From assembly GCA_033980235.1 (NCBI GenBank), contig CM067062.1:7772400-7836399 (forward strand): a stretch of DNA of 64,000 bases, in the 5' to 3' direction. Source of the stretch: Diadema setosum. Lineage: Eukaryota; Echinodermata; Echinoidea; Diadematoida; Diadematidae. The notes below the pieces were generated by a model. It saw only the letters and a program-made list of their open reading frames with translations, was not told the DNA's origin and did not search any database. Below are positions 2,123-51,613 of the stretch, one piece after another; the first letter of the stretch is position 1; every line of letters begins with the position of its first letter. The translations under genes were made by a program, and so were the position numbers.

Positions 2123-2244
2123 CTGGAAAAGACAGAATGTCTATTTCAGACATTGAAATTTGAATGGTGATATTGCAAAATTAGTAGAACAGGTTCAATT
2201 CAAGTATATCAGACACGTAACGATATCATACTATAATTCGAGCA

Positions 2245-2705
2245 ACGTTTGTCTGTTTGTTCCTCTACTCCTCCCAGGTCCTTGGTCCGATCTCCACCAA
2301 ACTTAGTGGGTGGATGCAGGTTGACCGCGAAATTGCCCTTGAAGTGTTCATTTCTGGAAAAGTTAAGGTCACTGGGGTCAAAAGGTCAAATAACTTCAGA
2401 CACCCGATAGAGGGCGCTATGTAGGCCTACTTATATGGGGATTCCCCCAGAAATATAATCAGACAACCGATAGAGGGCGCTATGTAGGCCTACTTATATG
2501 GGGATTCCCAGGTGTACGCCAAAGAGATTTTCCTCCTCAAAATCTCTTTGGTGTACGCCTACTTATGCTTCCAACAAGTTTGGCCAAGATCGGACCAAGG
2601 AGTAGCGCAAAACAGATATTTGACGTCTGTTGACCAAGTGACCTTGACCATTTCTGGGGGAATCCCCATGGAGGATTTCTGACACTCCACGGGTACATTG
2701 ACTAG
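2245..2705. repeat. Inverted-repeat element with internal tandem and hairpin
   Basis: The left part has CCTTGGTCCGATCTCCACC at about 2280. The right part has its inverse (GATCGGACCAAGGAG) at about 2590. Inside, a 63-base block starting CGATAGAGGGCGC is repeated in tandem (2405 and 2468). A hairpin with arms of about 20 bases (GTGTACGCCAAAGAGATTTT and its inverse) lies at 2512-2560. It sits in the intron between CCP3 and CCP2 of receptor A. Confidence 0.55.
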
Positions 2706-3472
2706 TAAATGTAATTCTGTAAACAAATTATTCTTCGTTGTTGTTAACGACCTAATACTATAATGGCAAATCTGAAAATCAAATAATTTCATTTAACGAT
2801 AGTGGTGGACAGAAAGGCTGATGTAAGTTTGATATATCTATTAAAATGTAATGTTGTTGTGGTTGCTACAGTGAAATAATAACAAAGGTATAAATGTTCC
2901 AGTGCTATACAGCTATATTATGCATATGGAAATAGAGCGACACAGGCAATGACAGGTGTTCGTTAATGGGTGTACGTGGAACTCCCCCTCTCTGTGTGAG
3001 TATAGATGCCAACTTAAGCCAGAATGGGCAAAGGATAGGTATGACATTACCAGTCTTTTCTCATTTTTAAGAGGCTATACCACTCTGAAGAATATTCCAC
3101 TTATAAGAAGTAGTTTCTCTGTGGAGTGTCATTTGGTTGCACTAATTCTATCGAACATACAATATTAATTAACAACGAGGCAGTAAATGCGCCGAATTTC
3201 TATATTTTAGAAATAGGGGTGTGTATACAATATAATTATTAGAGAGTATAAGACATCAAGACATTGTTAGACGACCTAGATTTTCTTTTTTTGCTAAGTG
3301 TTTATGTTATGACAGCAAACTCCCGAAAGCCATTACTTAATTCTGATATTTAAATTGCCCGCCGTTTTCAAATCATAGTCCGTCTCTGAGCCCACTGTTT
3401 GTAAAACTATTCCGTGTATTAGAGCTATGTGAACGTCAAAAAGAAACGTTGTCTGATAGATTGCAAATTTAC

Positions 3473-3700
3473 GTTCAACTACTTGGCAATAAGGGGTTGA
3501 TGCGTTCCAGACAAGGGAAGATGTCGTTTGACCATCATCAGACATGTCCGATGACTGCATACACAGCAGAGTTGCACTACCATTGAGCACATAACCATCG
3601 TCACAGTCCAGGGTTACCATGGATCCAAGCAGCGTTCTGTTTGAATCCCATTTTCTGTGTGTTACGTTACCAGAGTGACCACATGTTAACCGATCGTTAC
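3473..3700 (-). CDS. Receptor A exon 7: CCP/sushi domain 2
   Basis: A 228-base exon, phase 1-1 (TCCAG acceptor, C|GTAAAT donor). The CCP module has TCGHSGNVTHRKWDSN, LDCDDGYVLNGSATLLC and VWNASTPYCQ. All four cysteines and the conserved tryptophan are present. The Cys3-Cys4 loop is longer than in neighbours (MQSSDMSDDGQTTSS). It groups with the CG(H/Y/N)(P/S)G(N/D)V type found in receptor B CCP3 and CCP4. Confidence 0.87.
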
Positions 3701-3999
3701 CTGGATGGGAGAGAATGCCTACAAAACACAATATTAGGTGAGAGAAACGTTGGATTACATGTCTAGTAGAACAGGACAATGCCCACACGAGAAAAAAAAA
3801 TATGTCGACTAATTCTTTCAGAATACAATCATGTTCATTAATATTGTTTGTTACTGCTAGGAAATGATTTAAAAACATTTCGATTACGCGCCTGTGGTTG
3901 ATTTTATGCTTGTGATTACGAAGGTTAGCTCTTTTCAAAACGCAAAACTTGTATATCTGAGGCTAAGTTAATCCGAAAGTGAAAGAGACTTTGTTAAAT

Positions 4000-6290
4000 A
4001 ATAGAGATATTTATTGCAGTCATCCTCAGTGGAATCATTTCAAACATTTCTAAAACATATCTGTTTGATATATTGTAGAAAAAAAGGAATACATACTTCT
4101 TCTTTTTCTTCGTCTTATTATTCCCTTTCTTAATCTTTTTAGTATTTTTGATGAATTGTTGCGCTATAGAAGTTGACACTATTTTCATCATTATTAGTGT
4201 ATAATTGTATTTATCTCAAGGTTTCTGTGTTATAAAAGCTCAGATATGCAAGCTACTTTGAGATCAATTTTCCATCATAATTGCATTCATAATTCAGTCG
4301 AACAAAAGAATAGATATCCACTCGAGTATATTATAGTCTTTCATATACCATGCAGTGCATTGGCTCATGAACTCGTACCAAAGACACAATGTTGTCCAGA
4401 TGTATAGAAATTTCTTCCTACTGACATACATAATAGTTCTTCTGCAATTTCTTTGAAATACATTTAAGTGAATACCTTCACAATTATGCATTTAGTGACT
4501 GACTGCGAAATTTCTTCTTGTTTTCAGAAGAAAATTACAAATTAAGGCGTAACGTTCCAAATGTTAATGTCCGTTATTCTTGCCTTTTTCTTCTTCAGTT
4601 TTTGCTGTTTCTCTAACAATCACAATCACTGGTAATAGGAGTAGAGAGGTAGCTGATCGGCCTACAACACAGCGCTGCATTTCAGGCAGGAAAGTCATGG
4701 CACAGAAGCCCCACGCATAAGGGCAGGGCACGCGCAAGACATGCTGCAGGCACTGACAACAGATGAAGTCTCCTCCTCACCATTACTTCAGGGTCTGAAC
4801 ACCAAATCAGACGTAAGTAGTTATGTAGCTGTATTAGTTTGTTTTTGTAATATTCTGAAACAACCTTGTTATTATTGTTATATTTTTTGTATAGAGATTT
4901 ATGTTATGTTCGCTGGTTCACTATGATTATGTGAATTAATTATGTTAGAGTATATTATGATGTATGTCAGATTGGATATGTTGTATAATGGTAAAATAGG
5001 ATTTTGCTTTAGTTTGGCAAGAAGGCAGACCAAGTCAGCAGGCGAATGTTATATGTGAAATGTTTACATTTACAGTGATATGTGTGGATACAGTGTATTT
5101 TGTTTTTCTGTGATTGTGTCAGGAAAATACAATCCAGGTTCTGTTGTTCACAGTTAAAGTAAATGAAGTTAGAATTTTGGTAAATGATAAGTTGAAATAC
5201 AAATTTGGTTGCTAAAGAACTTAAATGAGAAATGGATTTATCTGTTAAGAGAATAGAGTTTTAGTTGTTTTTTGTTGTGAGATAGTTCACATACGAGATG
5301 ACCTGTAATGTTCATATTTTAAGTCGGTATATCGTTATATACATGGCGGCGGTTTATTTCTGTAGTATATAGGTATATATAGGTCTCTGTGATGGTGTAA
5401 GAATTAATTATGGTATTATACATTAGCATTATTGGTTAGGTGTAAGGAAATATTGAACTGTGGTACTACCCTGTGAATAAGTAATGTTATATGAGTGGTG
5501 GTTATAATATTCCCATGTATTATAGATCGACACCGACGAGCTGGGCTCGACGGCATTGCTACTACACTCGACGGCACGACCATTATCTCGACGGCATCGC
5601 CACTACACTCGACGGCATCACCATTATCTCAACGGCATCTCGGTTAGCGTGAGGGCAATTCCCGCTAGCTGGACAGAATTCCTATTAACTCGATGGTATA
5701 GCCCTCCGGTGCACACAGTGGCATTCCAACATTACCGGACGACATCCCGGACATCTTGGAAACCTCTGCATTACCTTACGGACTATCTCATCACCCGTTT
5801 CACCCCCATCCTCGTAGGACAGAACAAATTTGAATCACACGTGCGCATAGGATAGAGTATTGAACCTGAGGTATTTTGTTGAACCCGGGTCTAGTATTTG
5901 TCTAGAGTGTTTAGGAAGTGTCCAGGAATTGTGAGTATTATGTCATTGATTTGCTCCTGAACGTTTCTATATTTTTTCTGTGTAAATATGAACGAAATTG
6001 TATTGGGGTTTTTGTGGGGAAATACTGTAAAAATATGGGTTTTTTTTTTGTTTCTGAGAAGCTACATTCTTTGTTCAGTAAACTCATAGAGTGTTTAAGT
6101 GCATTATTTACATTGTATCTCATAGCAGAACCTCGCTATCGTCACTCGTGGAATGCAGATCTTGAGCTGACACTGATGAAATTACGTAATCCATTTTGTG
6201 CTACTTATTAATCTTGGTAGAGTAGATCACTGCGTTAAATCTTTAACAGTCAATTCTGTTTACTTACATTGAGTTCTTGCAACAAGTAAC
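4000..6290. other. Intron of receptor A, no exon seen
   Basis: The interval lies between CCP2 and CCP1 of receptor A. I see no further CCP motif on the minus strand. At 5545-5640 there is a short tandem array based on CTCGACGGCAT, alternating two slightly different 20-base units, so the true period is about 40 bases. The rest is AT-rich with no domain-like ORF. Confidence 0.5.
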
Positions 6291-6294
6291 TAAA

Positions 6295-6720
6295 CACAGT
6301 CCTGTCGCTGTACATGTAAGTCGCGACAGGGCTGTACCGTGTGGACACTACGTAATCTCAGGATTCTGGGGCGCCGACTCGATTTTGAATTTACCGCACC
6401 ATATTTGTTACTAAAACTACAGTGTACATAAGCTGACAACTTTATCTATTTAGTTACCATTTTCAGCTATTGATATTGACATGTACACAATTTACAACTT
6501 ACCAAAAATTACACCTTTTTTAATCGTGTACGCCGCAGAAATCGTAGAAATCGCAGAAATGATTCGAAATGTCGGCCCAGCACTGGGCAAAGATGGCGCT
6601 GTCGACTGTGTGGCCGTGTTCGAGGGGTTTAGTAGATATGTGTATGGGGTTTCGTAGATATGTGTATCACACACCGTACAGCCCTGTCGACTTACACTTG
6701 TGTACAGCGACAGGGCTGTG
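6295..6720. mobile_element. Foldback MITE
   Basis: The left end (CACAGTCCTGTCGCTGTACA, then GCGACAGGGCTGTACCGTGTG) is inverted at the right end (CACACCGTACAGCCCTGTCG, then CAGCGACAGGGCTGTG). No transposase ORF is present. The arms are about 50 bases. It is intronic in receptor A. Confidence 0.7.
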
Positions 6721-7023
6721 TATAGTTATGCAACAAGTTGCTTCGAAAAGATCAAGGTCTTTGTTATATTGCAAAACCCCTGTGCTCTCAACACATTTTT
6801 ATGTCAGATTCAACTCCAATACACAGCTTTGTGTAGGTTTCGTTTTGTTGCCATAAACACTGTCTTATTACGCTGGAATTGGTTGTGACTTCGACTGAGC
6901 CGAGTTGTCGCGGACACCTATCTCATTTTATCAGTGTAACTTGGACCTGATACTAGACAATCCAAAAAGATAATATTTCCCTTAAAATCTTATATTGAAT
7001 ATGAGTGTACGGAAAAGACTCAC

Positions 7024-7233
7024 TGTCAACCGCTTCGCAAGATGGGACCGATGAGTTCCAAACAGGAAAGTAAGTCGACCTTCCAGGTTGTCCTACACAC
7101 TGCAGTGCTACGCTGCCATTTATGACGTAATCTTTATCGCAAGTGAGGGTTACTATGGAGCCAAACCACGTGATGTTGGTATCCCATTGTCCGTGTTGGA
7201 TAATGTCAAGTTGATCGCAAAAGCCGTAGGAAA
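7024..7233 (-). CDS. Receptor A exon 6: CCP/sushi domain 1
   Basis: A 210-base exon, phase 1-1 (CTGTAG acceptor, A|GTGAGT donor). It carries one complement control protein module: GFCDQLD, TLTCDKDYVINGS, LQCVG, then PVWNSSVPSCEAV. This gives the four cysteines and the tryptophan before Cys4. Asn-x-Ser/Thr sites are present (NIT, NGS, NSS). It is the direct counterpart of receptor B CCP1, with the same length and the same SYGFCDQLD start, so CCP order is conserved between the copies. Confidence 0.88.
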
Positions 7234-7894
7234 CTACAGCAAAGGCAACCATAAATTACTTCAATTTATATGACGGTATGATGCACAAAAACGTATTTAG
7301 AATCACCATTACGCAAGCCGCTTGTATTTGAGAATGTTTAAAGCCATAGAAAACTGGATATAAAATCACAAAAAACAACCACGTTTCAATAAGGTTAAGC
7401 GATGTACAAGAACTTTCTTGGAATCATCATAACACGGCATTACAGAAACTCGATTGGACTTTTGATACCAAGTGCTCAAAGAACATGACGCAGAAAACGG
7501 ATCAATCAAATTGGAAATCTTGATTATGATCTCGCCGTGTTCATTGCTGCATCACATTATGGTCCTACATTATATAGTTCGTGCATGAAAAGTATCATTT
7601 TTGTTTGGATACAACACGTGGCGGTAAGATCATGTGTGTACGTAGGACAATAACCATTGTTTTAAAATACTGTGATACAGGGTTAGGGCATAACACAGAA
7701 TTTGAAGTAAAGATTAACAACCAAGGAATTATATATAAAGATAGCTAGATTGAAATATCATACGAAAAATTCAAAAAGGAAAAAAAGAGGATATCGTTGC
7801 CTGGATGGAAACAAAGAGATATGATAAACAATAGATTGAACGTAACTGCTTCAATTTGAGATTTTTTTTTTTCCAAGTGGCAGATAGATACATT

Positions 7895-8220
7895 GGCCCG
7901 GATTCACGAAGGTGGTACAAATAAAACCATGGTTTAAACCATGGACAAAAACCATGGAGCGCCAAGTGTCGCATGGAATATTTCGTTACGAAATCAGTCA
8001 TTTCGTCGACAAAATGTCTGTTTCGTTAACGAAATTATCATTTTGTGGACGAAATGTTCATTTAGTTACAAAATATTTTCATTTCGTTACAAAATAATCA
8101 TTTCATCAACGAAATGACTGATTTCGTAACGAAACATTCCAAGCGACACTTTGCGCTCCATGGTTTTTGTCCATGGTTTGAACCATGGTTTCATTTGTAC
8201 CACCTTCGTGAATTCGGGCC
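7895..8220. mobile_element. Palindromic MITE with 3-base ATT flanks
   Basis: Terminal repeats GGCCCGGATTCACGAAGGTG and CACCTTCGTGAATTCGGGCC bound a 326-base element. ATT is present on both sides, consistent with a 3-base target duplication of PIF/Harbinger type. The arms include repeated CCATGG blocks and repeated AAATG/CATTTCGT motifs, so most of the element can fold on itself. It is intronic in receptor A (WSC-CCP1). Confidence 0.8.
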
Positions 8221-9783
8221 ATTGTCGTAAACAGGCTGTATGTCTCCCGCCTCCCGCTTTAATGATTCAGCATTTTCTGTGCAACTTTACTTTTGTCTTA
8301 TATGTTAAAAAAAATATGGCTAAGATAGCACGAGATGAGAAATTATATAAAGAATAATCACAACACCCATTTTTGAGCGTTCCGTCCAGAGGTTCTTCCC
8401 GTCTATAGCAGGGTGGTTGGGGATGGGGGTGGAGGTTAACATTGAACCCTAGTCCTCTGCACTACACCTTCCCCCGACGCCCTTCCCCCAATATAAGCAG
8501 TATAAAAACAAACAAAACAAAACAAAACAAATCAGAGGACACACGTTCAACGGCTGCAGTAGGAGTTGCTTTGAATTAGAGTCTGTGTGCTCAATGACAT
8601 GATAATCTTTATTATATTTTATCTTAAAGTTTTCTATTGTACAATCGCTTCAAACACGACCCAGGAATTTTGCTACCTGTCTTGCAATCGTACTTGCCCG
8701 ATGTCAGTATTCCACTCATGACACCATGTTTAGAGTCACTGGAGTGAGTGTTGTCTTTATTCTTTACACTTTTATCTCTGACCTAATTCGGTCATGCATA
8801 ATCCATGATTTACATAACGATAAGTACAGTTTGAGATGACTAAATTATCAAACCGCATTTCAAGTAATTATTTATCATTCTTCCAAACGCGTCCCCCCCC
8901 CCATTTTTTTTTTCATTCTGTCAGGAGTTGTGTGCAACATTAGATTTGCCTCTAAACTTAATATAACTGAAAACCATATGCAAACAGCATACAAGTTAAA
9001 GTGTTTTCTTTAAAATTTAAATCTTAAAGAGATGTGTTAGAGGCAATTATCATGAATAACATTGGAAAGTGTTGTATGACAAGAGTATTTTTTAGACTGC
9101 TCGTGTGCAGGGGTGAGGTTACCATTTGACAGTAATTTGTCAAACACGAAAGAAAAGGGGAAGATAAAAAGAAAATAACTAAAAAAGATCTAACAATATT
9201 TCAGAAAGACCAAAAAGGAAAAAAAAATCCAGATATGTGATTTTTGTTTTGAAAACAATATTAAAAATACAATGTATACTTCTGCAGTTTATGTAGAAAG
9301 CATTGAAAGTTATCCAAAAAGACAGAGAAGAAAGTGTTTATATAAAAATGATTTGTTTTTCTAAGTTGCCTTGCCATATACTCCATCTATCTTGCACTGT
9401 ACATATCATAATGTAAGGTGTGCATTACCAAAGTAGGTCAGTGATCAGAGAATCAAGACAACACCATGCCGTGCGACACGGAACAGGAGCCCCCTCCCTC
9501 TCTCTCTCTCTCTTTGGAACTTTCAGCATAATCAGCACACAGCAACAAAACTACACGAAATATATAACTCTACTCTTCCTCTTAACAAGTAGGCATCACA
9601 GCTTTCATAATAAAGGATCAATATTTCAAAATTCCTTTCAAACTAACAGCTAGGAATGCACATCTAGTGGGTTCTGTGTCACATATCTTGTGGGTTGATT
9701 AATGCTTCAAACGGAAATCATTAGAGACCATCAATATCAGACTTAAAGAAATACATGTTGAGATATCATGGCACGAAACTCAC

Positions 9784-10004
9784 CATTAAATGCAAAATAC
9801 AGATCGTGTATGGATTGCAGGTCGGCCATGACAAGCACAAGCATGCTCCTTGGTGTATAACGGCTAAATCTGCAACTTTTCTTAGCCCTCGACATATTGA
9901 GACGCATTCCATTTCACTCTCCACGTTTGACTTCGACAGGTTATGAAAAGGACTGTAGTCTTGCAAGGGGGGTGGTTTCACAAAGCATCCAAGAAAACCT
10001 GGTT
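9784..10004 (-). CDS. Receptor A exon 5: WSC domain exon with 64-base deletion
   Basis: The acceptor CTCAG leads into EPGFLGCF, with MECVSICRG and AVIHQGACLC downstream, matching the first two thirds of a WSC (cell-wall stress component) carbohydrate-binding-type domain. After ACLC the sequence jumps, in a different frame, to the equivalent of the domain end (ADLQ to YFAFNG). The exon is therefore 221 bases against 285 in receptor B. The 64-base loss removes about 21 residues and breaks the frame. The normal donor (G|GTGAGT) is intact. A weaker GTATTT at 17 bases before the exon end would give a 204-base in-frame exon, and skipping the whole exon is also frame-neutral. Confidence 0.7.
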
Positions 10005-10453
10005 CTGAGACAAAACAATGCACACCTAATGATGAATTTTCTGCTTGATGAAGAACAAAGCATTTTCTTGGAGTATCGACTAATTATCATGACATTCTGT
10101 TTTCATTAACCAGGTATTTCTAGTTGTTGCGGCATTCACTCCAGCATAGGCCAATCAATCAAACAAGCAAACAGAAAGCTGCATTTGCCTTCGTGTGTTT
10201 CTCATCAAATATATGCATGATTTTGAAAATAACAAATCATGAAGCGTTTCTGATGCTGTATTGTAGGAGGACTTAAGTAGCTTTCGGAGGGTGATCAGAT
10301 GTTGGTTAGAAATAACTATGGGTTTCCTGTTGCTTAGTGCGCAAACAAACTTTCCTTTTTCTAAATCTATGAGCAAGTGAAACATTGTTAAAATCTTTGC
10401 TCAAAACAGCAGGGTAATATCCATAATGTATTTGAATAGCAATATTTCTTCAC

Positions 10454-10531
10454 CTCGGCATTTCACCTTCACTGCACTGTAAGAAGGGCATTTGGCACTT
10501 GTCCACGAGCAGTCTATCAAATTTCGCGAAT
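10454..10531 (-). CDS. Receptor A exon 4: SRCR domain, second half
   Basis: A 78-base exon, phase 1-1, between a CTACAG acceptor and a G|GTGAAG donor. It encodes SRNLIDCSWTSAKCPS and then AVKVKCRG, the C-terminal half of a group A SRCR domain (compare the ESLLDCPW-type motif, then a final VRC-type cysteine). It is too short to be found as a plain ORF; I located it from the conserved DCSW. The receptor B and C equivalents are also exactly 78 bases. Confidence 0.85.
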
Positions 10532-11277
10532 CTGTAGGATGAAATTTTGGGAAATTGCCAAATAGACATCAACCATTTTCAATCATCATGAAGAATTACA
10601 TCACCGAATCAAACGTTTATTCAGTCAAAATGCAACATAAGTAGAATACAAATATAAAATAATATACTTAAGCAATGTCCTTGTAAAAAGCAGTTATATA
10701 CTTATAAACTGTTTAAATTTAATGATTTTAGTGTATTTTCACGTTCCTAAACATATAAAAGTGAATATAATTTGAGTCAATTTCAAATTTAAATGAGATC
10801 GTGATATATACGTTACATTTTTGGCGTTCTTACGACTCATCAAATGTAGTATTATTATTGTTTGTAAATGTCTGTGTATACTTTGTGTACTAGTCAATAG
10901 TGTTGCAACAGTGGATAGTATTTTCCCTTAGTTGTACTTACCTGCCTATGGGAAGGTACTAACCTTTGAATGTTCACATACATGCTTTCATTTATAAAGA
11001 AATAAAGTACTTTATATGTTATATGCCAAACTTCATTTCTTTTAACTATGATTAAAAGTTGTTATTGGAAGTAGAATTAGAATTAGAACACATTTCGCGA
11101 AAATTCGAAAAGCTACGAAAATGAAAAATATACATACGATCGAATATTGGAAATCTAGACCCTTACGCATGTCCAAAGGGATCGATTTGTTTCAAAGGAA
11201 TGATATGAAGAGATTGAATGCAAAAACAGAAAAATGTCATTTTCAAGTTTTAAAATGTAATGTCATTGAATAGAGCT

Positions 11278-11317
<40 letters not shown>

Positions 11318-12312
11318 TGTGATGACAGTGTTCTCTTCATATGACAAGAAGTATTTTTGCCAATGTAAGTACAATAATGACACGTAGTTCAACCATTTTC
11401 TTTGTTTTTCAGCAGCTTTTATCTTGAATATCTCAAATTGACAAAAATTGACATTATGGTATTTTGCATTTAAAATCAGCGATCGAAAGTCACTCATGCG
11501 TGGTTCTTTTTGATCGACGAAAAATGTGAAATGACTGTTTTACCTGTAAATTAATCGATGCTATTTTTCTGAGGGCTATAATATTTTACAGTGAAACGCT
11601 TGTTGCGACTATCATCGAGTGATCAGTTCATTACCATCTTTTTTTTTTGGGGGGGGGGAGGGGGCTGGATAGAGTACCTAAAAATACCATTTTCGCTACT
11701 GCTCACAATATTATAGGTGGATTAATTATATTTGACCTATTTTGTAGCTAGGGCAACCCCAAAATATCAGATATCAAAAGGCAATATTAATTTTTGCAGT
11801 CTACTAAAACAAACCAGCAAAATGAAACGGTCAGTGTCGATATTGTAATTCATTTTTATATGAAATAAAGTGTAGGATGTTGCCTGTGAACAGGCCCTAA
11901 ACAAATACATTGGATGCTGACCTGAGTTGTGGCCTTCGGCATAACTCCAAAACCACAGAACCACGATTTAAATGCCGTTTTGCTATTTTGCGTAATTTGA
12001 AGTGATCACGAAGGTATGTTTTCACATTTCTTATACATTTTTTTTTTTTTCATTTTGAGTCCTCCCGTATAATCGAGGTGTGCGACTTTTTGTTGGTTTT
12101 GTGATGCACGGTCACATAATATAATTGCATCGCTTACACACTTTTGCTAAACACTTCAAACCTAATCGACACAAATTATAAGCAAATTATGATACCAACA
12201 CTGTGTGTACATGTGCATTAAAATGCAGGAACCAATAACAGTCAAATTGAATTGAAAACACAGGGGTAAGTAAAAACAACAAGAACAACAACAAACAAAG
12301 AACTAAAATTAC

Positions 12313-12537
12313 CTTGAAGACAACTACTTTTGGCCCTGATCCATTTCACTTCGTTGCTGCGTTGCTGCGTTGAAAAAGAAACATTCTGGGAAGCAGGGAA
12401 GCCAAGTTCCCTGCAGATCGAATCAGCAATCTGTTCCGTAAATCCATCACTGCAGACAAAGCTGCCCGAGGCTGATCCCAAAACTGCAAAGCCCTCGAGA
12501 GGGGAATGTCCCTCGATGAGTCTCATGGCAGGTCCAT
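12313..12537 (-). CDS. Receptor A exon 3: SRCR domain, first half
   Basis: The 225-base exon is phase 1-1, with acceptor TACAG and donor G|GTAATT. It encodes MRLIEGHSPLEGFAVL, then FVCSDGFTEQIADSICRELG, the hallmark core of a scavenger receptor cysteine-rich domain. Three of the six group A cysteines are here (FVC, SIC, SSC); the other three are in the next exon. The split over two exons and the six-Cys count fit group A SRCR domains. SRCR domains commonly bind polyanionic or microbial ligands; the ligand here is unknown. Confidence 0.88.
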
Positions 12538-15500
12538 CTGTATTCCAACAAATTAATTCTTTATTCGTTAGCGTGTGAATGGCATTGTCGTGAATGTAGT
12601 GTTTTAAAAGACACAGATAATCTGCCCAAAATCCTTTACGACTCAACCAAACATTAAGTGACGATAGTAAATAATCCCAAGGAAGAGCTTAGGTAGCTAC
12701 CATATAACATGCAATGGATGATTCGAAGCTATGGCATACCACATCACTCTATTAAGTTCTGATTCAGATTTTATTCCTTTGTTTTTTATTGAACATCTTT
12801 CAATCGAAATGCAGCCACGTTTACATTTACTAAAAAACAATAAGACGTACATTCAGCACATTCAAACAAGCGAAACTAATCACGCAATAATCTGATAACA
12901 AAATGGAAAGTTTCAGAGATGTCGATTTCACTAATTTAAAGCAGAAGAACAACCGGGAATCTAATTGGTTCATGCAGAATACTGGTGGGCTTGGAATGCA
13001 GGAGACACTCGGAGAAATGGTTTGAAGAGAGTATATACAACCAGTATATTTGCACTGTTGTTCGCATGCATATCATTTTGTATTTTTTAACTCCCCACAA
13101 TTATAACTGTTAGCAATATTTAACCATCACCACTTCATAAGACCTGTAAGTAATTATTGAAGTTTCACTATTCCTAGATGAATCAGTCATTTTTGTTTTT
13201 GTTTACACTTATATTATATACGTTCAGTATGCTTCATGTAATATTCTTTCATGTTTTATGTTTTAGAGTATGCTCTTCATTACCATACTCTTATAGGGGC
13301 CTAGAATCTACCTGATCACACATACATAAAATAAGGCTGTCACGAAATGTGTTGATAGACAAAACAGTTTTATTTGTATTTTTATATCTGGCGTTCTATT
13401 TATTAAACAGACAAGGATAATAATGAGACCTTGCATCACAAAACCAACAAAAAGTCGCACCCCTTGATTTTACATGAGGAATCAGAAAAGGTGAGACGGG
13501 TCAACCAAGTCAATCTTGAGTCTTTCACGTTTTCCTAAAAAGCTATCTTTCTTCTACATTATTCCTGAAAATCCGTTGAACACTCTTCACTTTCAACTCT
13601 AATAACCTTTGAAATGCTACTGCTCTTAAAATTGGCATTAATCATGTACAGAATGTATTAATAGAGCATGCTTAATTTCAGCTTAATTTGATAATCCCTT
13701 TATTGTTGTTGCATCAGTGGTTTACCTTGTATTTTTGTCCCAATCATCTCACAGCTAGCACGGTTTAGTAAAGATTAAGCACTTGGATAGACCCTGTACT
13801 TTAGAACCTCTTTTCTCAGTTCACACTTTTCCAGAGTGTGTGCTTTCTTTCCAATATTAAAATAGGTTAGGAGAATCCATTTGAATTGAGTTATACATCA
13901 TATTAAAGCATAGAGTCTGCTCTTTTATGATCTGCCCTTAAACTAAAAATCCATTACTGGCGACCTTTTGTTCGGTTTGTGATGCAGGGTCACATATGAC
14001 ACTGATTTGCACTAATTTTTGTATTTGTGTGTGTTTCAATTTTCTGTATCTCAAGGATAGCAAGGCTAAAGACGATCGTTCATGATAAAGATAAGGCAAT
14101 GATGTTATTTGAAAAAAAAAAGAATAATAACATGAATATTCGAACTGTATTTCATTGATACAGAGTAGCTGTTGAAAAGGTAGCTCTTGAAAAGTTACAG
14201 CCGACTAGATACTCGTTTTAGACGGTCTTTAATTAATCTTGTAATAACATATTATCTTTGATATAACCGGAAGTTCTAATTTTTTCCAGCGTCAACCTTA
14301 ACACACCGTATAATCTACTATATCATATCCCATTTAGCTCATATTTCAAAATGCACCGCTTTCTAAAACTATTTTTTCTTAATTTCGTTAAATATCCGTT
14401 TTCCTGAAATATCAAATCCGGATGCAGAAGCGGACATGAAAACAATTACGCAATTCCAAATATGTGTGACACAATGATCTGAACTATTTTTAGTATGATA
14501 CATCTTGATATACATGTACGGATTTATCGGAAGAACTTGACCATTCAAGATTAATCCACATTGGTAACTCATGGTAAATAAAAAGTCAGGTTTTGTTTTG
14601 GTTCATAGATTATTTGCTAAAACATTCTCGACTGTTAAGCTCATGAATAACAATGATATCATATGTAGTATACTTTTAATATCTTTGTTAGGATCCTCCC
14701 CTATGAAATGGTATAAAATCCTCCCAATTTATTAGTGTAGTCATTCTGTATCTAATCAATTTGCATTTATCGTTTAACATTGTACCATACTGTCTTTGGA
14801 AATCAGTCTTTAACTTGATCCATCTTGTCAATAAGAAATGAATTGAAGATAATAGATATATGGTATTTTTAGTATGAAATATTTCTAATAACAAGAAATA
14901 TTCGTCACATCGAGGTGATTCAAAAGATGGGAGTTTCAAATGGCTATAATCATTCAATTATTTTATTTTGTCAGTTTTGTATGGATGAAAAAAAGAGTTA
15001 CAGGGTGCGGTTTTTTTTTTGTACCTTTGATTATGAGGATTGGTTTATTAATGTTATTTTATTCATAACATCTTTTAACGAGAACATTCCGTTCAGATCT
15101 GCTAATATCCAGCAGACCTGCTTTTCAAGGAAGGCATACATGTGATAAGGAGGCACGTTTTCGATAACTTTTGTAATCATTTACATTTGGTTTTTTTTTT
15201 ATCAATAATCAGTCATTAATAAAGGCCAACTATCGGACATTTAGTAATAACGTCAGCGAAATAGGCGAAGGACGTCCATCTTACACGTACACATTTCGCT
15301 TTAATTATCAGTATCATCTTATTCTGACACACATGTACACATAATATACTCTCATACAAAGTCGTTGAGGCGTTGTTCTCATTTCTAAGCCACACGCTCA
15401 AACACACACCTCAGGAGACATAAGCCTACACACATATACAATGTTAGATAATATTACCATTCTGCGTTTTTCATCTTTGCCTTTTCCTTCAGGATATATA

Positions 15501-16033
15501 AAAGGAATTGTAAAAGAAATGTAATAGTAGATGTTACCATTTTTGTATAGTTATTGTTGGAGCTGTCATTAAATCCAAACTCTTGTTATGATTGACCTCT
15601 CCTATATATATTGCTACTTTCCCTCTTGCTATCGTTTTTTTTTTTTTTTTTTAGTATGTCACTTTGCTATTTTTCTTTATCAGCAACACTCATCACCAGT
15701 CTGTCATGATATTTGCTATCTCAACATTATATCCCATATATTACGGTCATGCTTGATATTCTGTACTTTTTTATCACTCTATCTGCAGAAAAAAAAAATA
15801 CTACAAAGATCAAACCAAAGCAAACAACAGTTAGGAAATTCCTGTATTTCTAAAATGACATCCAAGGTGATCCAACCATGCTTACTACAGGCTAAAATAT
15901 CGATTTTATAGTCATACTGCAAACACGAATATAGTGCAGCTCCCGAGTTAACGGAATTGCAAGGTATTGATAAAACGATATTAATATCAAATTGACTAGA
16001 TGTTATACATAATGTATAACAAAGATCAATTAC
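12538..16033. other. Intron of receptor A
   Basis: A 3.5 kb intron between the SRCR part 1 and CUB-like exons. It contains the MITE at 13429 and simple T or A runs. I see no additional domain-encoding exon on either strand. Confidence 0.5.
13429..13998. mobile_element. MITE with GACCxTGCATCACAAA ends
   Basis: The left end GACCTTGCATCACAAAACC and the right end GGTTTGTGATGCAGGGTC form an inverted pair about 560 bases apart, followed inward by AACAAAAAGTCGC and GCGACCTTTTGTT. A third, lone copy of the end lies at 12079-12117. It is in the intron between the CUB-like and SRCR exons of receptor A. No coding potential is seen. Confidence 0.6.
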
Positions 16034-16354
16034 CTCTTAAACAGGACGCGGTAACGCGGACTCTGACAGGGTATATATATATCTGCGGGCCAGATATATA
16101 TAGCTGGAGTCTCAGTTTGTGGCCAAGTGAAAAGACAGGTGTAGATCTGGTGTTATTCGAAATTACAACTTCATTTTTCACAGTTGATAGCTCATCCTCT
16201 ATGGTTACTTCCACGTGCTGATTGTTGGTAGATTGCAACCACAAAACGATTCTTCCAGCAGCTAGTATTTCCCACCTGTCGATAAAAACACTAATCCCGT
16301 CCTTTGCCGTCATGATAATAGTATCTGCATTAGCCGAACAGTCCAAAGTGTGAC
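16034..16354 (-). CDS. Receptor A exon 2: CUB-like domain
   Basis: The 321-base exon has a CAG acceptor and a G|GTAATT donor, phase 1-1. It encodes about 107 residues starting HTLDCS and ending VTASCLRG, with a single cysteine near each end. Between them are beta-strand-like blocks (FIDRWEI, IVLWLQS, SLGHKLRLQLYIS). The pattern of an aromatic-rich centre with a terminal disulfide recalls CUB domains (compare W-x-I-x-A-P-x-G-x-R and S-x-G-x-x-L-x-L). The second CUB disulfide and the calcium-site motif are not visible, so I call it CUB-like only. It is about half identical to the receptor B exon by eye. Confidence 0.7.
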
Positions 16355-16807
16355 CTGTGATAAGTTATGAAAACCAAATTAGAAACAAATTATTGTAAAA
16401 CTGATTGATCATTTACTTCACCTCATTGAATAATGCAATATTAAACAAAGACCCTTATTATAGAAGAATATTCTGCCCCTCACCCCCTACTCCATCTATG
16501 GGTTTCACTCGTTTGCTCAGAACCCAATGATAGGGAGACACTAGTCCAAAATATTGTTCTCCCTTTGGAAACACCAAAGAATTATTTGAACTTTTGATGA
16601 ACCTTGAGTTTTTACAGGTCTGATTGTCATCAAGAATTCACGTTTTCATGTTGAAAAGAATTGCAAATGAGGGACCTATGGCCGTAAAAGGTCTGTGATT
16701 TTAAGAAAAAAAAAAGGAATAGTCCTTCCAAGAGAATCGTTCGGAGTGCAAAAGCAAACTAACGCAATAAACTAATCTGAAAAGGTATCAACCTCAAGAA
16801 TACTTAC

Positions 16808-16886
16808 TTATCAATTCGAATGAATATTGTTGAGGGAAAGAGAACAGGATTATCACAAATATCCAATTATTCAGACTGGAAGCCAT
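16808..16886 (-). CDS. Receptor A exon 1: signal peptide
   Basis: The ATG at 16886 opens 26 codons beginning MASSLNNW, followed by a hydrophobic core (IFVIILFSF), and ends at a strong donor, A|GTAAGT, in phase 1. This is a typical secretory signal peptide, so the mature protein should start near the exon junction. The start is supported by its match to receptor B exon 1, where MALSLAKW aligns with MASSLNNW. A TATATATA lies about 60 bases upstream on the minus strand (16946-16953), and a CCAAT-containing motif shared with receptor B is at 16923-16935. Confidence 0.75.
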
Positions 16887-25140: not shown

Positions 25141-27081
25141 TTAGTGTTTCACCTGGTTAGTTTGATAGCTGAATGCAGATTGTAATGGATCATTCAAACA
25201 AGTCGCAAAGGGGTAGCGTTCTTCATTTTCTACGGATATTCGCGTACTCAGGATAATCCTACTTTGCTTGCTTCCCTGCTGATTGGTTGGGAGTTGCTTC
25301 CTCTGTATATGCTTCAAGAACAAGTGAGCCTTTTTACTCCAACTCGGGCATTTCCCTTGGTTTGTCAGGGTAAATGGATGCAGAATATAATGAATCATTC
25401 AGAGAAGTGCAAGACGGTCGCATTTTCCATTTCTTCGAATATTCGCATACTCGGGATATTCCTGCATTTCTTGGTTGGCTGTTGATTGGTCGGAGAAGCT
25501 CCGTCTGGATTTGCTTCAAGAGCAAGATAACTTTTTTCATCCAACTCGGGCACTTTTCTTGGTTTGTCAGGGTAAATGGATGCAGAATAGAATGGATCAT
25601 TCAGAGAAGTTGCAAGGCGGTCGCATTTTCCATTTTTTCGAATATTTGCATACTCGGGATATTCCTGCGTTTCTTGATTGGCTGTTGATTTGTCGGGAGT
25701 AGTTCCGTCGGGATTTGCTTTTGGAACGAGATAGCCTTTTTGATCCGACTCGGGCATGTCTCTTGGTTTGTCAAGGTAAATGGATGCAAAATATAATGGA
25801 TCATTCAGAGGAGGTTGCAAGAGCCTCGCGTTTTTTATTTCTCCTGATATTTGCATACTCGGGATGATCCTGCGTTTCTCGGTTGGCTGTTGATTGGTCG
25901 GGAGGAGTTTCGTCGGGATTTGCTTCAAGAACAAGATAACCATTTTCATCCAACTCGGGCATTTTTCTTGGTTTGTCAGGGTAAATGGATGCAGAACAAA
26001 ATAGATCATTTAAAGGAGTTGCAAGATGGTCGCGTTTTTTATTTCCTCGAATATTCGCATACTCGGGATATTCCTGCATTTCTTGTTTGGCTGTTGATTG
26101 GTCAGGAGTAGCTCCGTCATGATTTGCTTCAAGAACAAGATAGCCTTTTTCATCCAACTCGGGCGTTCCTCTTGGTTTGTCAGTGCAAATGGACGTAGAA
26201 TATAACGGATCATTCTGATGAGTCGCAAGACAGTCAAATTTTTCATTTCTTCTAATATCCGCATACTCGGGATTTTCCTGCGTTTCTTGTTTGGCTGTTG
26301 ATTGGTCGAGAGTAGTGTTGTCGGGATTTTCTTCAAGAACAAGATAGCCTTTTTTATCCAACTCGGGCATTTCTTTTGGTTTGTCAGGGTAAATGGATGC
26401 AGAATATAATGGATCATTCAGAGGAGTCGGAAGAGAGTTGCGTTTTTTATTAGTACGGATGTTCGCATACTCGGAATGATCCTGCGTTTCTTGATTAGCT
26501 GTTAATTGGTCGGGAGTAGTTTCGTTAGTATTTGCTCCAAGAACAAGATAGACTTTTTCATCCAACTCGGGCATTTCTCTCGGTTTGTCAGGGTAAATGG
26601 ATGCAGAATACTTCAGAGGAGTCGGAAGAGAGTTGCGTTTTTTATTAGTACGGATATTCGCATATTTGGAATGATCCTGCGTTTCTTGATTGGCTGTTAA
26701 TTGGTCGAGAGTAGTTTCGTTAGGATTTGCTTCAAGGACAAGACAGCCATTTTCATCCAACTCAGGCATTTCTCTTGGTTTGTCAGGGTGAATGGATGTA
26801 CAATATAATAATGGATCATTGAGAGGTGTCGCAAGAGGGTCGTGTTTTTCATTTCTTCGAAAATTTGCATACTCAGGATTATCCTGCGCTTCTTGGTTGG
26901 CTGTTGATTGGTCGAGAGTAGTGTTGTTGGGATTTGCTTCAGGAACAAGATAGCCATTTTCATCCAACTCGGATATTTCTATTGGTTTGCCTGAGTACAT
27001 TGATGTAGAACATAAAGGATCATTCAGGTCTTTCGCAAGAGGGTCGCGTTTTTCATTTCTACGGATATTCGCGAAATCATG
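25141..27081 (-). repeat. Tandem array of about 204-base units, coding then decayed
   Basis: The units within the ORF start at 27081 (FANI), 26877 (YANF), 26670 (YANI), 26475 (YANI), 26271 (YADI), 26067 (YANI) and 25863 (YANI, truncated). Unit lengths are 68, 69, 65, 68, 68 and 68 codons. Left of the stop codon the array continues for about three more units, in changing frames. The landmarks ASIYPDKP, GYLVP, YLALEANP and NDPLY remain readable, with single-base indels near 25813, 25492 and 25407. The last recognisable sequence ends at about 25141. Confidence 0.85.
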
Positions 27082-27564
27082 GTAGGGAGCAGTTTCGTCG
27101 GACTTTGTCTCGACAACGGGACAGCCAGCTTTATCTACCTGGGACATTTCTCTTTGTCTCCTTTGTCTGCGTTTTTTAGTACTAACGATATTCATGTAGT
27201 CGGGGTGATGCGTTTCTAGGATGTTCGCGGACTGGTCGGACGTTAAGGACCTTCTATTTCCAGTGCCATCAGCGTCTATCTCTTTACGACTTGCCTGAGG
27301 TTGACACGTCTTGACTTTAGTCAAGTTGACATTGGGAAGCAGGTAATCATCCGCATCTAATTCATTTTTGTCTTCACCGTTCTTTGTAGACCGAGGAAAC
27401 TTGACGTCCGCCTCATATTTCTTTTTTATGGTACCTGACATGCCTACGTATAGCTCTTTTTCCTGACCATTCTTTATCCTGACATCCTGGTGAGACAGCG
27501 AACTACTGCTTGAAGAAATTGAAGTATCTTTCTGCCTGCTCACTTTTGCCACAGCATAGTGATA
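25801..27564 (-). CDS. Receptor B exon 12: cytoplasmic tail with tandem tyrosine-motif repeats
   Basis: The acceptor TTTCAG|TAT is followed by 587 codons in frame with the TM exon (YHYAVAKVSRQ), then TGA at 25801-25803. The first 160 or so residues are unique: a Ser run, DDYLLP, then HHPDYMNIV and a basic cluster (KKRRQRRQR). From 27081 the tail is a tandem array of 68-residue units (65-69). Each unit has PEYANIRRNxKRDxLATPLN, then DPLYSASIYPDKP, PELDENGYLVLEANP and a DQSTANQETQ linker. YxN matches the Grb2-type SH2 preference; SxYxxI in two units (SKYANI, SEYANI) matches the ITIM consensus. YLVL to YANI spacing is about 23 residues, too long for a classical ITAM. The last unit is cut short by a frameshift. 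No enzyme domain is seen. Confidence 0.85.
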   Translation of the reverse strand, partial: YHYAVAKVSRQKDTSISSSSSSLSHQDVRIKNGQEKELYVGMSGTIKKKYEADVKFPRSTKNGEDKNELDADDYLLPNVNLTKVKTCQPQASRKEIDADGTGNRRSLTSDQSANILETHHPDYMNIVSTKKRRQRRQREMSQVDKAGCPVVETKSDETAPYHDFANIRRNEKRDPLAKDLNDPLCSTSMYSGKPIEISELDENGYLVPEANPNNTTLDQSTANQEAQDNPEYANFRRNEKHDPLATPLNDPLLYCTSIHPDKPREMPELDENGCLVLEANPNETTLDQLTANQETQDHSKYANIRTNKKRNSLPTPLKYSASIYPDKPREMPELDEKVYLVLGANTNETTPDQLTANQETQDHSEYANIRTNKKRNSLPTPLNDPLYSASIYPDKPKEMPELDKKGYLVLEENPDNTTLDQSTAKQETQENPEYADIRRNEKFDCLATHQNDPLYSTSICTDKPRGTPELDEKGYLVLEANHDGATPDQSTAKQEMQEYPEYANIRGNKKRDHLATPLNDLFCSASIYPDKPRKMPELDENGYLVLEANPDETPPDQSTANRETQDHPEYANIRRNKKREALATSSE

Positions 27565-28548: not shown

Positions 28549-28691
28549 TCGAATATTGGTGCTACGTTTCTTGATGAACTTTCGAAGAATACTAGTACCA
28601 ATCAGTGCGAAAAGAAGAAGTCCAACGACAACTGAGCCCGTAATAGTTGCCTTTCGCATGTACCATTCTCTCCTCATAGATCCACCCCATC
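28549..28691 (-). CDS. Receptor B exon 11: transmembrane helix and stop-transfer
   Basis: A 143-base exon, phase 1 in (TGCAG acceptor) and phase 0 out (CGA|GTAAGA donor). After GWGGSMRREWYMRK comes a hydrophobic segment of about 22 residues (ITGSVVVGLLLFALIGTSIL), followed by RKFIKKR, a strong positive-inside stop-transfer signal. Phase 0 matches the tail exon exactly. This exon makes the gene product a type I membrane protein and links the ectodomain to the repeat tail. Confidence 0.82.
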
Positions 28692-29419: not shown

Positions 29420-29482
29420 CTGCAGATGATGTTACAGTTACCGTTCGCATTCGCGTAATTCCCTGTGTAGGCTGGCTTGCAC
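29420..29482 (-). CDS. Receptor B exon 10: Thr/Ser-rich stalk
   Basis: A 63-base exon between CAACAG and G|GTGAGT, phase 1-1. It encodes GASQPTQGITRMRTVTVTSS and then Ala before the donor. It is rich in Thr and Ser and has no cysteine, which fits a short juxtamembrane stalk that could be O-glycosylated. It was found only through its fit of phase and splice sites between CCP4 and the TM exon, so it is less certain than the domain exons. Confidence 0.65.
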
Positions 29483-30112: not shown

Positions 30113-30328
30113 CTTCAACTGCTATACAAGATGGGGTTGACGCGTTCCAGACTAGTCCGTGAGTCGATCGACTACCTCCTGGTGACGTCACACAGAGCAA
30201 CGTAGCACTACCGTTGGGGACATAACCTTCGTCACAATTTAGTGTTACAGTGGATCCAAGCAGCGTGGTGTTTATACCCCATGTTCCGTGCGATACATTA
30301 CCAGGATTACCACAGTTCGATACGTTGC
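30113..30328 (-). CDS. Receptor B exon 9: CCP/sushi domain 4
   Basis: A 216-base exon, phase 1-1 (TCCAG acceptor, G|GTAATA donor). It encodes NCGNPGNVSHGTWGIN, LNCDEGYVPNGSATLLC and LVWNASTPSCIAVEG, a canonical CCP. It is the membrane-proximal module and is followed by the stalk exon. Confidence 0.88.
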
Positions 30329-31628: not shown

Positions 31629-31844
31629 GATCGACTTCTTGGCAAGACGGGGTTGATGCGTTCCAAACTGGTGTGTATGTCAATGGATTATCGTTGGATG
31701 ACGCCACACACAGCAACGTTGCGCTTCCATTGACGACGTAACCATCATCACAATCCAGTGTTACCGTGGATCCAAGTTGTGTGATGTTCGAACCCCATTT
31801 TCCGTGTGAAACGTTACCGGGGTAACCACATTTTAGCCTGTTAC
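31629..31844 (-). CDS. Receptor B exon 8: CCP/sushi domain 3
   Basis: A 216-base exon, phase 1-1 (GGCAG acceptor, C|GTAAAT donor). It encodes LKCGYPGNVSHGKWGSN, LDCDDGYVVNGSATLLC and PVWNASTPSCQEV. This is a canonical four-cysteine CCP with the tryptophan kept and N-glycosylation sites (NVS, NGS, NAS). Confidence 0.88.
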
Positions 31845-32905: not shown

Positions 32906-33121
32906 CCCAGGACATTGATTCTACACTCTGACAGGTTGGGAGGGATGCATTCCACACAGGTAGATTGCTGTCGGAAGAACGTATGCATTGCAAAGTGACA
33001 CTGCCATTGATGACGTAACTATCATCGCAAGTAAGAGATATTGAGGAGCCAAGTGACGTCTCAGTAGAGTTCCATCTTCCGTTAGAAATATCACCAGGGA
33101 AATCGCAAAACATCCCAGAGG
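32906..33121 (-). CDS. Receptor B exon 7: CCP/sushi domain 2
   Basis: A 216-base exon, phase 1-1. It encodes MFCDFPGDISNGRWNS, LTCDDSYVINGSVTLQC and PVWNASLPTCQS. The donor sits further downstream than in its relatives (G|GTACTT), because the ancestral site after VE has been lost; this adds SMSWG. The polypyrimidine tract of the acceptor is extended by a (CT)n microsatellite (33133-33185). Receptor A has no direct counterpart in this window. Confidence 0.82.
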
Positions 33122-33633: not shown

Positions 33634-33843
33634 CCTCCACTTCTTGGCAACATGGTACCGACGAGTTCCAAACAGGGAAGTACGTCGACCGTCCAGGTAG
33701 TCTCACACACTGTAGTGTGGCGTTACCATTGATGACGTAACCATCCTCACAGGTCAGGTTTACAATGGAACCAAACCACGTGACGTTGGAGTCCCATTGT
33801 CCGTGCTGGACAACGTCAAGTTGGTCACAAAAGCCATAGGAAA
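33634..33843 (-). CDS. Receptor B exon 6: CCP/sushi domain 1
   Basis: A 210-base exon, phase 1-1 (TGTAG acceptor, G|GTACGT donor). It encodes SYGFCDQLDVVQHGQWDSN, LTCEDGYVINGNATLQC and PVWNSSVPCCQEVEG. An extra cysteine lies next to Cys4 (PCC, where receptor A has PSC). A run of about 17 C residues follows the donor on the transcribed strand. Confidence 0.88.
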
Positions 33844-38338: not shown

Positions 38339-38623
38339 CATTAAACGCATAGCACACAGCAGATTTGAATTCCAGGTCCGCTCTATCAGCACATATCCAC
38401 TCATGAAGGTTGGTTTCTGAAGAGGATATGCTAGAAAATGACTCTGATGGGACGCACAAGCATGCGCCTCGATGTAGAACAGCTACGTCCGCAAACTGTC
38501 TTTGTCCTCGGCACATGAAGATACACTCCAGGTCGTGCTCGACGGCATGTCTGGGGAAACTCCGACTTAGAGTGTTAATCTGCGTACTTGATAGCTTCTT
38601 GTAACAGCCAAGGTAACCAGGAA
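38339..38623 (-). CDS. Receptor B exon 5: WSC domain, intact
   Basis: A 285-base exon, phase 1-1 (CCTCAG acceptor, G|GTAATT donor). It encodes VPGYLGCY, DLECIFMCRG, ADVAVLHRGACLCVPSES, then EWICADR and CYAFNG. This is the WSC pattern: GCY/GCF start, paired C-x-x-x-C, the AxxxG-x-C-x-C core, and a C-terminal hydrophobic-Asn-Gly end. WSC domains are cysteine-rich modules first known from yeast cell-wall sensors and are thought to bind glycans. This is the reference copy that exposes the deletion in receptor A. Confidence 0.88.
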
Positions 38624-39128: not shown

Positions 39129-39206
39129 CTCGGCATTTTAAGTGCACAGCTCTCCGAGAGAGACATTCGGTCCTTGTCCACGAGCAATTCACCATACTTC
39201 GTGAAT
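39129..39206 (-). CDS. Receptor B exon 4: SRCR domain, second half
   Basis: A 78-base exon, phase 1-1 (CACAG acceptor, G|GTGAGG donor). It encodes SRSMVNCSWTRTECLSRRAV and ends HLKCRG. The three cysteines complete the six of a group A SRCR. The donor is stronger than in receptor A. Confidence 0.85.
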
Positions 39207-39707: not shown

Positions 39708-39941
39708 GTTCGGGACAACTTTCAGCCTTGATCCAATTTCCTGCGTTTAAATAGGAATACAACTCGACGCTAGAAATCTTCTGATAGGAAGGAAAACCAA
39801 GAGCTCCACAGATCGAATCAGCAACGTTTTCTGTAAAATCATCACTGCAAACAAAGCTGTCCGTAGCAGATTGCCAAACCACAACACCCTCGAGAGGAGA
39901 CTGTTCCCCGATGAGTTTCAGATGAGGAAAAAGTTGTGTAT
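39708..39941 (-). CDS. Receptor B exon 3: SRCR domain, first half
   Basis: A 234-base exon, phase 1-1 (TATAG acceptor, C|GTACGT donor). It encodes LKLIGEQSPLEGVVVW, then FVCSDDFTENVADSICGALG and IKAESCPE: the N-terminal half of a group A SRCR domain with three cysteines. It joins in frame to the 78-base second half (the junction codon makes His). Confidence 0.87.
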
Positions 39942-40752: not shown

Positions 40753-41077
40753 CTTTTAAACACGTTGCGGTGATGTCGACTCTCACGGGATATATATATC
40801 TCCGGGTCGGATATATATAGTCTAAGTCTCAACTTGTGGCCAAGTGAAAAGATAGGTGGAGATATGCTGAAATTTTCAAGTTCAATCTCACTCTTAATGG
40901 TAGAAATCTCATCCTCTGTGGTAACCTTTATGTACTGATTGTTGATAGATTGCAGCCATAGAACCATCCTTTGACCCTTAGGTGCTTGTATTTCCCACCT
41001 GTCGGCAACTACCCGTATCACGCTGTCTGCCTGGATCGCAAGGGTAGTGTAACCCATCGAACAGTCGAGAGTTTGAC
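40753..41077 (-). CDS. Receptor B exon 2: CUB-like domain with broken frame at its 3' end
   Basis: The acceptor TTCAG leads into QTLDCS, then VVADRWEIQAPKGQRMVLWL and SLGHKLRLRLYISDPEIYI, collinear with receptor A exon 2. Up to the canonical donor (AAAAG|GTAACT) the exon is 325 bases. This is not a multiple of three and would shift the frame into the SRCR exon. The cause is a two-base shortfall near 40788, just after an (AT)5 run. A second donor, C|GTGAGA, ending the exon at 40787 gives 291 bases and restores phase 1, at the cost of about 12 residues including the C-terminal cysteine. Confidence 0.65.

Positions 41078-51580: not shown

Positions 51581-51613
<33 letters not shown>

What the first reader, a model, noticed from the sequence alone, without database searches (positions are those of the whole stretch)
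25801..27081. Cytoplasmic tail built from tandem 68-residue tyrosine-motif modules
Six full units and one partial unit repeat the order YANI, YSAS-IYPDKP, YLVL. The exon joins in phase to a clear TM exon, so the array is intracellular. YxN sites fit Grb2-type SH2 docking, YxxL/I fits ITIM-like or hemITAM-like use, and repetition would give high-valency recruitment. I know of no described receptor family with this modular tail. This is the strongest candidate for an undescribed system in the window.
Basis: partly seen in the sequence, partly recalled or inferred. Interest (0 to 1): 0.88.

Follow-up and report, generated by a model that had tools for sequence, protein, structure and literature searches.

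The report
Sea-urchin receptors with multiplied tyrosine tails
A long-spined sea urchin gene encodes a predicted cell-surface receptor whose inner tail repeats one 68-residue tyrosine-bearing segment six times, likely so that one receptor can gather many signalling proteins at once; 78 places in this genome carry such tail segments, and the database hits came only from the same urchin genus.

Summary
The array is real. It lies in scaffold_4 of Diadema setosum. The tail exon (27564-25801, minus strand) joins in phase 0 to a transmembrane exon; exons outside it encode an SRCR domain, a WSC-like domain and four CCP/sushi domains. An NCBI-listed D. setosum protein from another assembly has the same junction, units and C-terminal end. 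The unit belongs to a Diadema gene family: 78 tail loci on 8 scaffolds; every row of three protein searches is Diadema. Many members have one cassette, others two to nine, and units match one-to-one between relatives. Two other tyrosine cassettes were multiplied in sister genes, the window's neighbour included. Tyrosine columns are more constrained than the rest of the unit (pN/pS 0.22 against 0.61). Best reading: multivalent phosphotyrosine docking tails, likely for SH2 proteins (inferred). Doubts: no transcript data, weak overall tail constraint, and a possibly damaged 5' end in the window gene.

The parts
40787..41077 (-). N-terminal domain exon 2 (looked CUB-like to me, recalled; no Pfam match); modelled to an in-phase alternative donor because of a 2-nt difference from the paralogous exon at 16358-16032
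39708..39941 (-). SRCR domain, first exon
   Evidence: PF15494 9.5e-8, PF00530 1.4e-6
39129..39206 (-). SRCR domain, second exon
38339..38623 (-). WSC-like domain exon (PF01822 at 18.9 bits, below the 27.8 cut-off)
33634..33843 (-). CCP/sushi domain 1
32906..33121 (-). CCP/sushi domain 2
31629..31844 (-). CCP/sushi domain 3
30113..30328 (-). CCP/sushi domain 4
29420..29482 (-). short linker exon, phase 1-1
28549..28691 (-). transmembrane exon followed by basic residues, ends in phase 0
25801..27564 (-). cytoplasmic tail exon, 587 residues and stop
27082..27564 (-). non-repeated proximal tail with YVGM, DDYLLP and PDYMNI, the counterpart of the proximal part of single-cassette tails
26884..27081 (-). 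cassette 1 (FANI, SMYSGKP, GYLVP)
26677..26883 (-). cassette 2
26482..26673 (-). cassette 3
26278..26478 (-). cassette 4
26074..26277 (-). cassette 5
25870..26070 (-). cassette 6
25810..25869 (-). partial cassette 7 (PEYANI); the frame ends soon after, one extra C relative to the other units
25173..25800 (-). decayed or out-of-frame remains of further cassettes
900..16886 (-). gene A, tandem paralogue with signal exon and like ectodomain exons; its tail, just left of the window, carries a different tyrosine repeat

Best explanation
The array is the predicted cytoplasmic tail of a type I transmembrane receptor with SRCR, WSC-like and four CCP domains outside, and its repeated 68-residue cassettes likely act as multivalent phosphotyrosine docking sites for SH2-domain proteins. 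Shown by sequence: an open frame in phase with the transmembrane exon, the same junction and C-terminal end in a second D. setosum assembly's protein, a family with one cassette in many members and two to nine in others, and stronger constraint on the tyrosine columns than on the rest of the cassette. Inferred: ligand binding outside clusters the receptor, a Src- or Syk-type kinase phosphorylates the GYLVL and EYxxI sites that sit in acidic stretches, and the number of cassettes sets how many SH2 proteins one receptor recruits. A proximal YxxM site (YMDM in the consensus of 18 relatives, YVGM here) would add PI3-kinase p85.
For: GT-AG exons from exon 2 to the tail give 1237 residues with no stop. 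P0001 (D. setosum, NCBI) matches 882 residues at 91% with the same STNIR|YHYAV junction, six units and the same ...SSE end. 93 units from 23 open frames give a common consensus. Tyrosine columns have pN/pS 0.22 against 0.61 for the others; 30 of 10000 random four-column sets are as low. In frames under 200 aa (mostly decayed copies) the tyrosine columns fall from 281 of 348 to 45 of 65, while other columns stay at 0.602 and 0.609. Units are index-matched between orthologues or close relatives: 8 of 8, 9 of 9, 5 of 5, 5 of 5. Ten aligned proteins keep the YMDM, YLLS, YLVL and YESI tyrosines as invariant columns; in 18, the first two stay invariant and the YLVL one is at 90% or more. Two other tyrosine cassettes were multiplied in sister genes. 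The tail had no predicted fold (a weak model).
Against: No transcript, phosphopeptide or binding data. Overall tail constraint is weak: omega 0.51-0.82 in nine paralogue pairs, and tyrosines are not always kept (11 of 20 in L023/L024, 10 of 13 in window/L010). Retention between orthologues (26 of 31; 47 of 53) is about what the tails' general identity (89.1% and 94.3%) would give. Conserved D, S, K and E columns say that the cassette is more than its tyrosines. No convincing signal exon was found for this gene, its exon 2 is 2 nt short against gene A's, and P0001's model starts only at CCP2, so this particular copy may be damaged at its 5' end.
Confidence: 0.62

Rival explanations
1. The repeats are multiplied endocytic sorting signals: YxxPhi motifs (YLVL, YANI, YMYI) bound by AP-2 when unphosphorylated, making a fast-internalising scavenger receptor.
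For: 13 of 27 tail tyrosines in the window gene and 21 of 45 in L018 are YxxPhi, Phi taken as L, I, V, M or F; SRCR genes are a scavenger-receptor class (PMC10855680, passages).
Against: The SIYSxKP and YSxSI tyrosines do not fit YxxPhi but are also kept (68 of 93 and 75 of 92), though less strictly (pN/pS 0.36 and 0.41 against 0.14 and 0.11). At GYLVL the +1 Leu (80 of 93) is as constant as the +3 Leu (76 of 93), and acidic positions before it are constant, which AP-2 does not need (recalled).
Confidence: 0.2
2. The array is a neutral minisatellite inside a degenerating gene; the open frame is a by-product of recent duplication.
For: Decayed copies follow the stop; pN/pS between the in-frame units is 0.66; gene B lacks a found signal exon and has the 2-nt difference; other members also carry stops or broken arrays (L016, L020, L027, L040).
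Against: Separate genes keep long open arrays (784, 800, 631, 549 aa frames) with units matched one-to-one to D. antillarum or to another D. setosum assembly in the pairs compared; tyrosine columns are constrained; three different cassettes were multiplied.
Confidence: 0.12
3. An ITIM- or hemITAM-type inhibitory or activating receptor in the strict sense.
For: YxxL/I sites recur once or twice per cassette; ITAM-pattern matches occur in some relatives (5 in L018, 3 in L019, 1 in P0001).
Against: The canonical ITIM pattern occurs 2 times, ITAM 0 and hemITAM DGYxxL 0 in the window tail; the residue at -2 of the GYLVL tyrosine is I, V, L or S in 2 of 78 units.
Confidence: 0.06

Closest known systems
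Sea-urchin SRCR superfamily (S. purpuratus SRCR genes with WSC, Sushi and CUB domains)
   Same: SRCR genes that also carry WSC and Sushi domains; 36 WSC and 38 Sushi counted in the sea urchin's SRCR genes (PMC10855680, passages)
   Different: The main text has 0 occurrences of 'tyrosine' and of 'Diadema'; the tail here was found only in Diadema
Bovine WC1 / CD163 family
   Same: SRCR receptors with tyrosine-based tail motifs such as YEDI and YREM (PMC2906472, passages)
   Different: No tandem 68-residue cassettes in the passages seen; ectodomains lack WSC and CCP (recalled)
p130Cas / NEDD9 substrate domain
   Same: Disordered stretch with extensive tyrosine phosphorylation sites (PMC3983058 and PMC3706375, starts of abstracts in the listing)
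   Different: Cytoplasmic adaptor with YxxP motifs (recalled); here a receptor tail with longer mixed-motif cassettes
LAT/SIT-type transmembrane adaptors and CD28-type tails
   Same: YxN, YxxM and YxxL/I sites in an unstructured tail (recalled)
   Different: No amplified cassettes and no large ectodomain (recalled); Pfam SIT matched two relatives only at E 0.13 and 0.1, over the TM region

Membership tests
SRCR superfamily (animal receptors) | SRCR domain above Pfam cut-off | tested here: met
   PF15494 33 bits (cut-off 27), PF00530 29 bits (cut-off 26.1)
SRCR superfamily (animal receptors) | signal peptide, single TM, cytoplasmic tail | tested here: inconclusive
   TM and tail present; a signal-like exon seen for gene A but none convincing for this gene
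WSC domain proteins | WSC domain above Pfam cut-off | tested here: not met
   18.9 bits here and 23.9 in gene C against 27.8; called WSC-like only
ITIM receptors | [IVLS]xYxx[ILV] as the repeated motif | tested here: not met
   2 matches in 587 residues with 27 tyrosines
ITAM / hemITAM receptors | YxxL/I x6-12 YxxL/I, or DGYxxL | tested here: not met
   0 and 0 in the window tail; ITAM pattern 3, 5 and 1 times in L019, L018 and P0001, hemITAM 1 each in L009 and L019
Grb2-docking receptors | conserved YxN sites | tested here: inconclusive
   6 of 27 here, 7 of 30 in P0001, 8 of 34 in L009, 2 of 49 in L019, 0 of 45 in L018; binding not testable
Diadema SRCR-CCP tyrosine-tail family (this report) | tail cassette EYxxI - YSxSIYxxKP - GYLVLE after a TM exon | tested here: met
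Phosphotyrosine docking tails | tyrosine phosphorylation and SH2 binding | not testable with these tools
   needs phosphoproteomics or binding assays

The most novel reading that the evidence does not exclude
Diadema urchins own a private receptor family in which signalling valency is an evolved, gene-by-gene dial: three different tyrosine cassettes (EYxxI-SIYxxKP-GYLVL, YMDMSG-GYLVS, LYxKV/LYVNV) were separately multiplied in tandem behind similar SRCR/WSC/CCP ectodomains, so that receptors with like recognition domains assemble SH2 scaffolds of different size and composition, possibly condensate-forming immune receptors.
Probability: 0.4. Interest if true: 0.85.

Novelty: new variant of a known kind. 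Interest (0 to 1): 0.7.

Why it matters
Multivalent phosphotyrosine tails are usually studied in engineered proteins or in single natural adaptors (recalled). Here a natural gene family offers tails with one, four, five, seven or nine copies of the same cassette on related receptors, plus two other multiplied cassettes, so the effect of valency on signalling could be tested with evolved variants. It would also show that large echinoid SRCR families diversify on the signalling side as well as on the recognition side.

Tried and rejected
Rejected: an artefact or sequencing error at the 25801 stop (P0001 ends at the same place). Rejected: strong homogenisation of units within arrays (orthologous units match one-to-one). 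Rejected: strict ITIM, ITAM and hemITAM membership. Not settled: whether the window gene is intact at its 5' end. Led nowhere: a signal-exon scan for gene B (one weak candidate, unlike gene A's); Pfam on the tail (two sub-threshold matches); a search for long repeats in the ectodomain part (none); PDB by sequence (only CCP-type matches to complement and related proteins in the 23 rows); paper searches for a described family; AlphaFold of P0004 (mean pLDDT 37.5; the SRCR part was not modelled either, so low pLDDT is weak evidence for disorder). Self-BLAST and Tandem Repeats Finder did not report the LYxKV repeat of gene A's tail: it was seen by eye and then tested with a pattern chosen after looking (7 matches in 439 residues; 0 of 10000 shuffles reach 7, the highest has 2).

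Full report
WHERE IT IS. The window is G000:C4:7772400-7836399. That scaffold is 43,371,471 bases long, the exact length of scaffold_4 in the Hong Kong Diadema setosum assembly (PMC11066563, passages incl. Table 4). The assembly was made from PacBio HiFi reads.

THE OBSERVATION. A 204-base tandem repeat occupies 25173-27072 (9.3 copies, score 2264). On the minus strand it is read by one frame that ends at 25801. A unit HMM places six full units and one partial one in that frame. Beyond the stop, further copies are out of frame or carry stops. The four tyrosine positions are Tyr in 18 of 24 places in the six full units (read by eye).

THE GENE. Eleven exons with GT-AG borders give 1237 residues without a stop, from exon 2 to the tail; the outer exons are phase 1-1 and the TM-to-tail junction is phase 0. 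Pfam finds SRCR and four Sushi domains and a sub-threshold WSC match. The intron between the WSC-like and CCP1 exons holds LINE-like ORFs: 2 of 4 pieces scanned matched, one reverse transcriptase and one endonuclease. Weak points: no convincing signal exon was found. Exon 2 is 2 nt short against the paralogous exon of gene A, though a good donor just after the gap restores phase. The closest annotated protein starts only at CCP2.

OTHER ANIMALS AND ASSEMBLIES. Three protein searches returned 6, 14 and 25 rows, and every row was D. setosum or D. antillarum. The search needs shared 5-residue words, and only the 7990 best candidates were scored, so distant relatives could be missed. P0001, a D. 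setosum protein on a 48,786,125-base contig and so from another assembly than the Hong Kong one, aligns over 882 residues at 91% with the same junction, units and C-terminal end. Its CCP2-4 part is 99.5% identical and its tail 89.1%. P0002 (D. antillarum) matches locus L019 of this genome at 94.3% over the tail. Units match by position in every comparison made: 8 of 8, 9 of 9, 5 of 5 and 5 of 5. At least the L019 array therefore predates the split of D. setosum and D. antillarum.

THE FAMILY. Combining two own-genome searches (118 matches, 130) gives 78 tail loci on 8 scaffolds, 32 of them on this scaffold. I fetched 33 stretches at loci: 20 of about 10 kb and 13 of 1.2-1.6 kb; the other loci were not read. 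Each of the 13 short pieces holds one copy of the cassette, one of them (L040) broken across two frames and others with early stops. Whole ones have the typical order YMDMSG - DENGYLxS - YEDIP - EYxxI - SIYSxKP - GYLVLE - LYENEIS - YESIP, with exceptions, as in ten returned proteins. The 68-residue unit is the middle of that tail. L025, L026 and L028 also have one copy; the remaining 17 ten-kb pieces have two to nine in their longest frame or are broken up (L020, L027). In 5 of the 16 frame ends listed, the array stops at a TAA in the same unit position, followed by remnants.

OTHER CASSETTES. The neighbour gene A, whose signal and ectodomain exons lie in the window, has a tail just to the left with a different module, LYAKVDK/LYVNVD (by eye). 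A pattern test finds 7 copies in 439 residues against at most 2 in 10000 shuffles (pattern chosen after looking; self-BLAST and TRF did not report it). Its first tail stretch is related to that of L013 and L014, which carry the 68-residue array (E 4e-6 and 1.5e-4). A gene on C29 has 3.0 copies of a 162-base YMDMSG-GYLVS cassette at 97%, and P0005 seems to have two diverged copies of it (by eye). So three kinds of tyrosine cassette were multiplied in one receptor family.

CONSTRAINT. In 93 units of at least 40 residues from 23 frames of at least 200 (of 132 aligned rows), tyrosine columns are Tyr in 60 of 72, 75 of 92, 68 of 93 and 78 of 91. Over 763 of 4278 unit pairs (those up to 30% divergent), pN/pS is 0.22 for these four columns and 0.61 for the rest; 30 of 10000 random four-column sets are as low. 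The pairs are not independent, but all columns share the same pairs. In frames under 200 aa (29 rows, mostly decayed copies) the tyrosine fraction falls from 0.807 to 0.692 while other columns stay at 0.602 and 0.609. Against this, whole-tail omega is 0.51-0.82 in nine paralogue pairs, and several recent pairs have lost tyrosines. Selection keeps the cassette, but loosely.

HOW IT LIKELY WORKS. From established knowledge (recalled): an unstructured tail with tyrosines in acidic stretches and hydrophobic +3 residues is a usual substrate for Src- or Syk-type kinases and a binding site for SH2 domains; YMDM is a PI3-kinase p85 type site. Multiplying the cassette would raise the number of SH2 proteins per receptor. 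AP-2 sorting is the main rival: YxxPhi covers 13 of 27 tyrosines but not the SIYxxKP or YSxSI sites. Grb2-type YxN is a feature of this subfamily and L009, not of L018 or most of L019.

NOVELTY. Literature searches found echinoid SRCR expansions with WSC and Sushi domains (PMC10855680, passages) and tyrosine motifs in mammalian WC1/CD163 (PMC2906472, passages), but no receptor with such a modular tail in the listings (open-licence library only). I rate it a new variant of a known kind: multi-tyrosine signalling receptors, with tandemly multiplied cassettes as the new element.

Noticed in passing
window 900-16886 and L042 (C4:7764000-7772450), minus strand: Tandem paralogue (gene A) with the same kind of ectodomain but a tail of LYxKV/LYVNV repeats (7 pattern matches) instead of the 68-residue cassette.
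   Followed up: partly
window 46132-61987, plus strand: A third, diverged member: SRCR exons (46132, 60778) and a WSC-like exon (61730) on the opposite strand, running out of the window.
   Followed up: no
window 34707-37481, minus strand: LINE-like ORFs with endonuclease and reverse transcriptase matches in the intron between the WSC-like and CCP1 exons of the receptor gene.
   Followed up: partly
window 40787-41077: 2-nt difference in an (AT) run of exon 2 relative to gene A; a good donor directly after it restores phase 1.
   Followed up: partly
window 25801-27564 against P0001: Tail 89.1% identical but CCP2-4 99.5% identical to the other D. setosum assembly's protein: fast tail change within a species or between cryptic lineages.
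   Followed up: partly
L043 and L034 (C29:510162 onward): 3.0-copy, 97% identical 162-base YMDMSG-GYLVS cassette duplication in another family member.
   Followed up: partly
P0003 and P0006: These NCBI gene models look like fusions: P0003 of two neighbouring receptors (by eye), P0006 with retroelement domains (its Pfam column).
   Followed up: no
window 644-877 and 22682-23282: A perfect 117-base tandem duplication and a 306-base duplication at 95%, unrelated to the tail.
   Followed up: no
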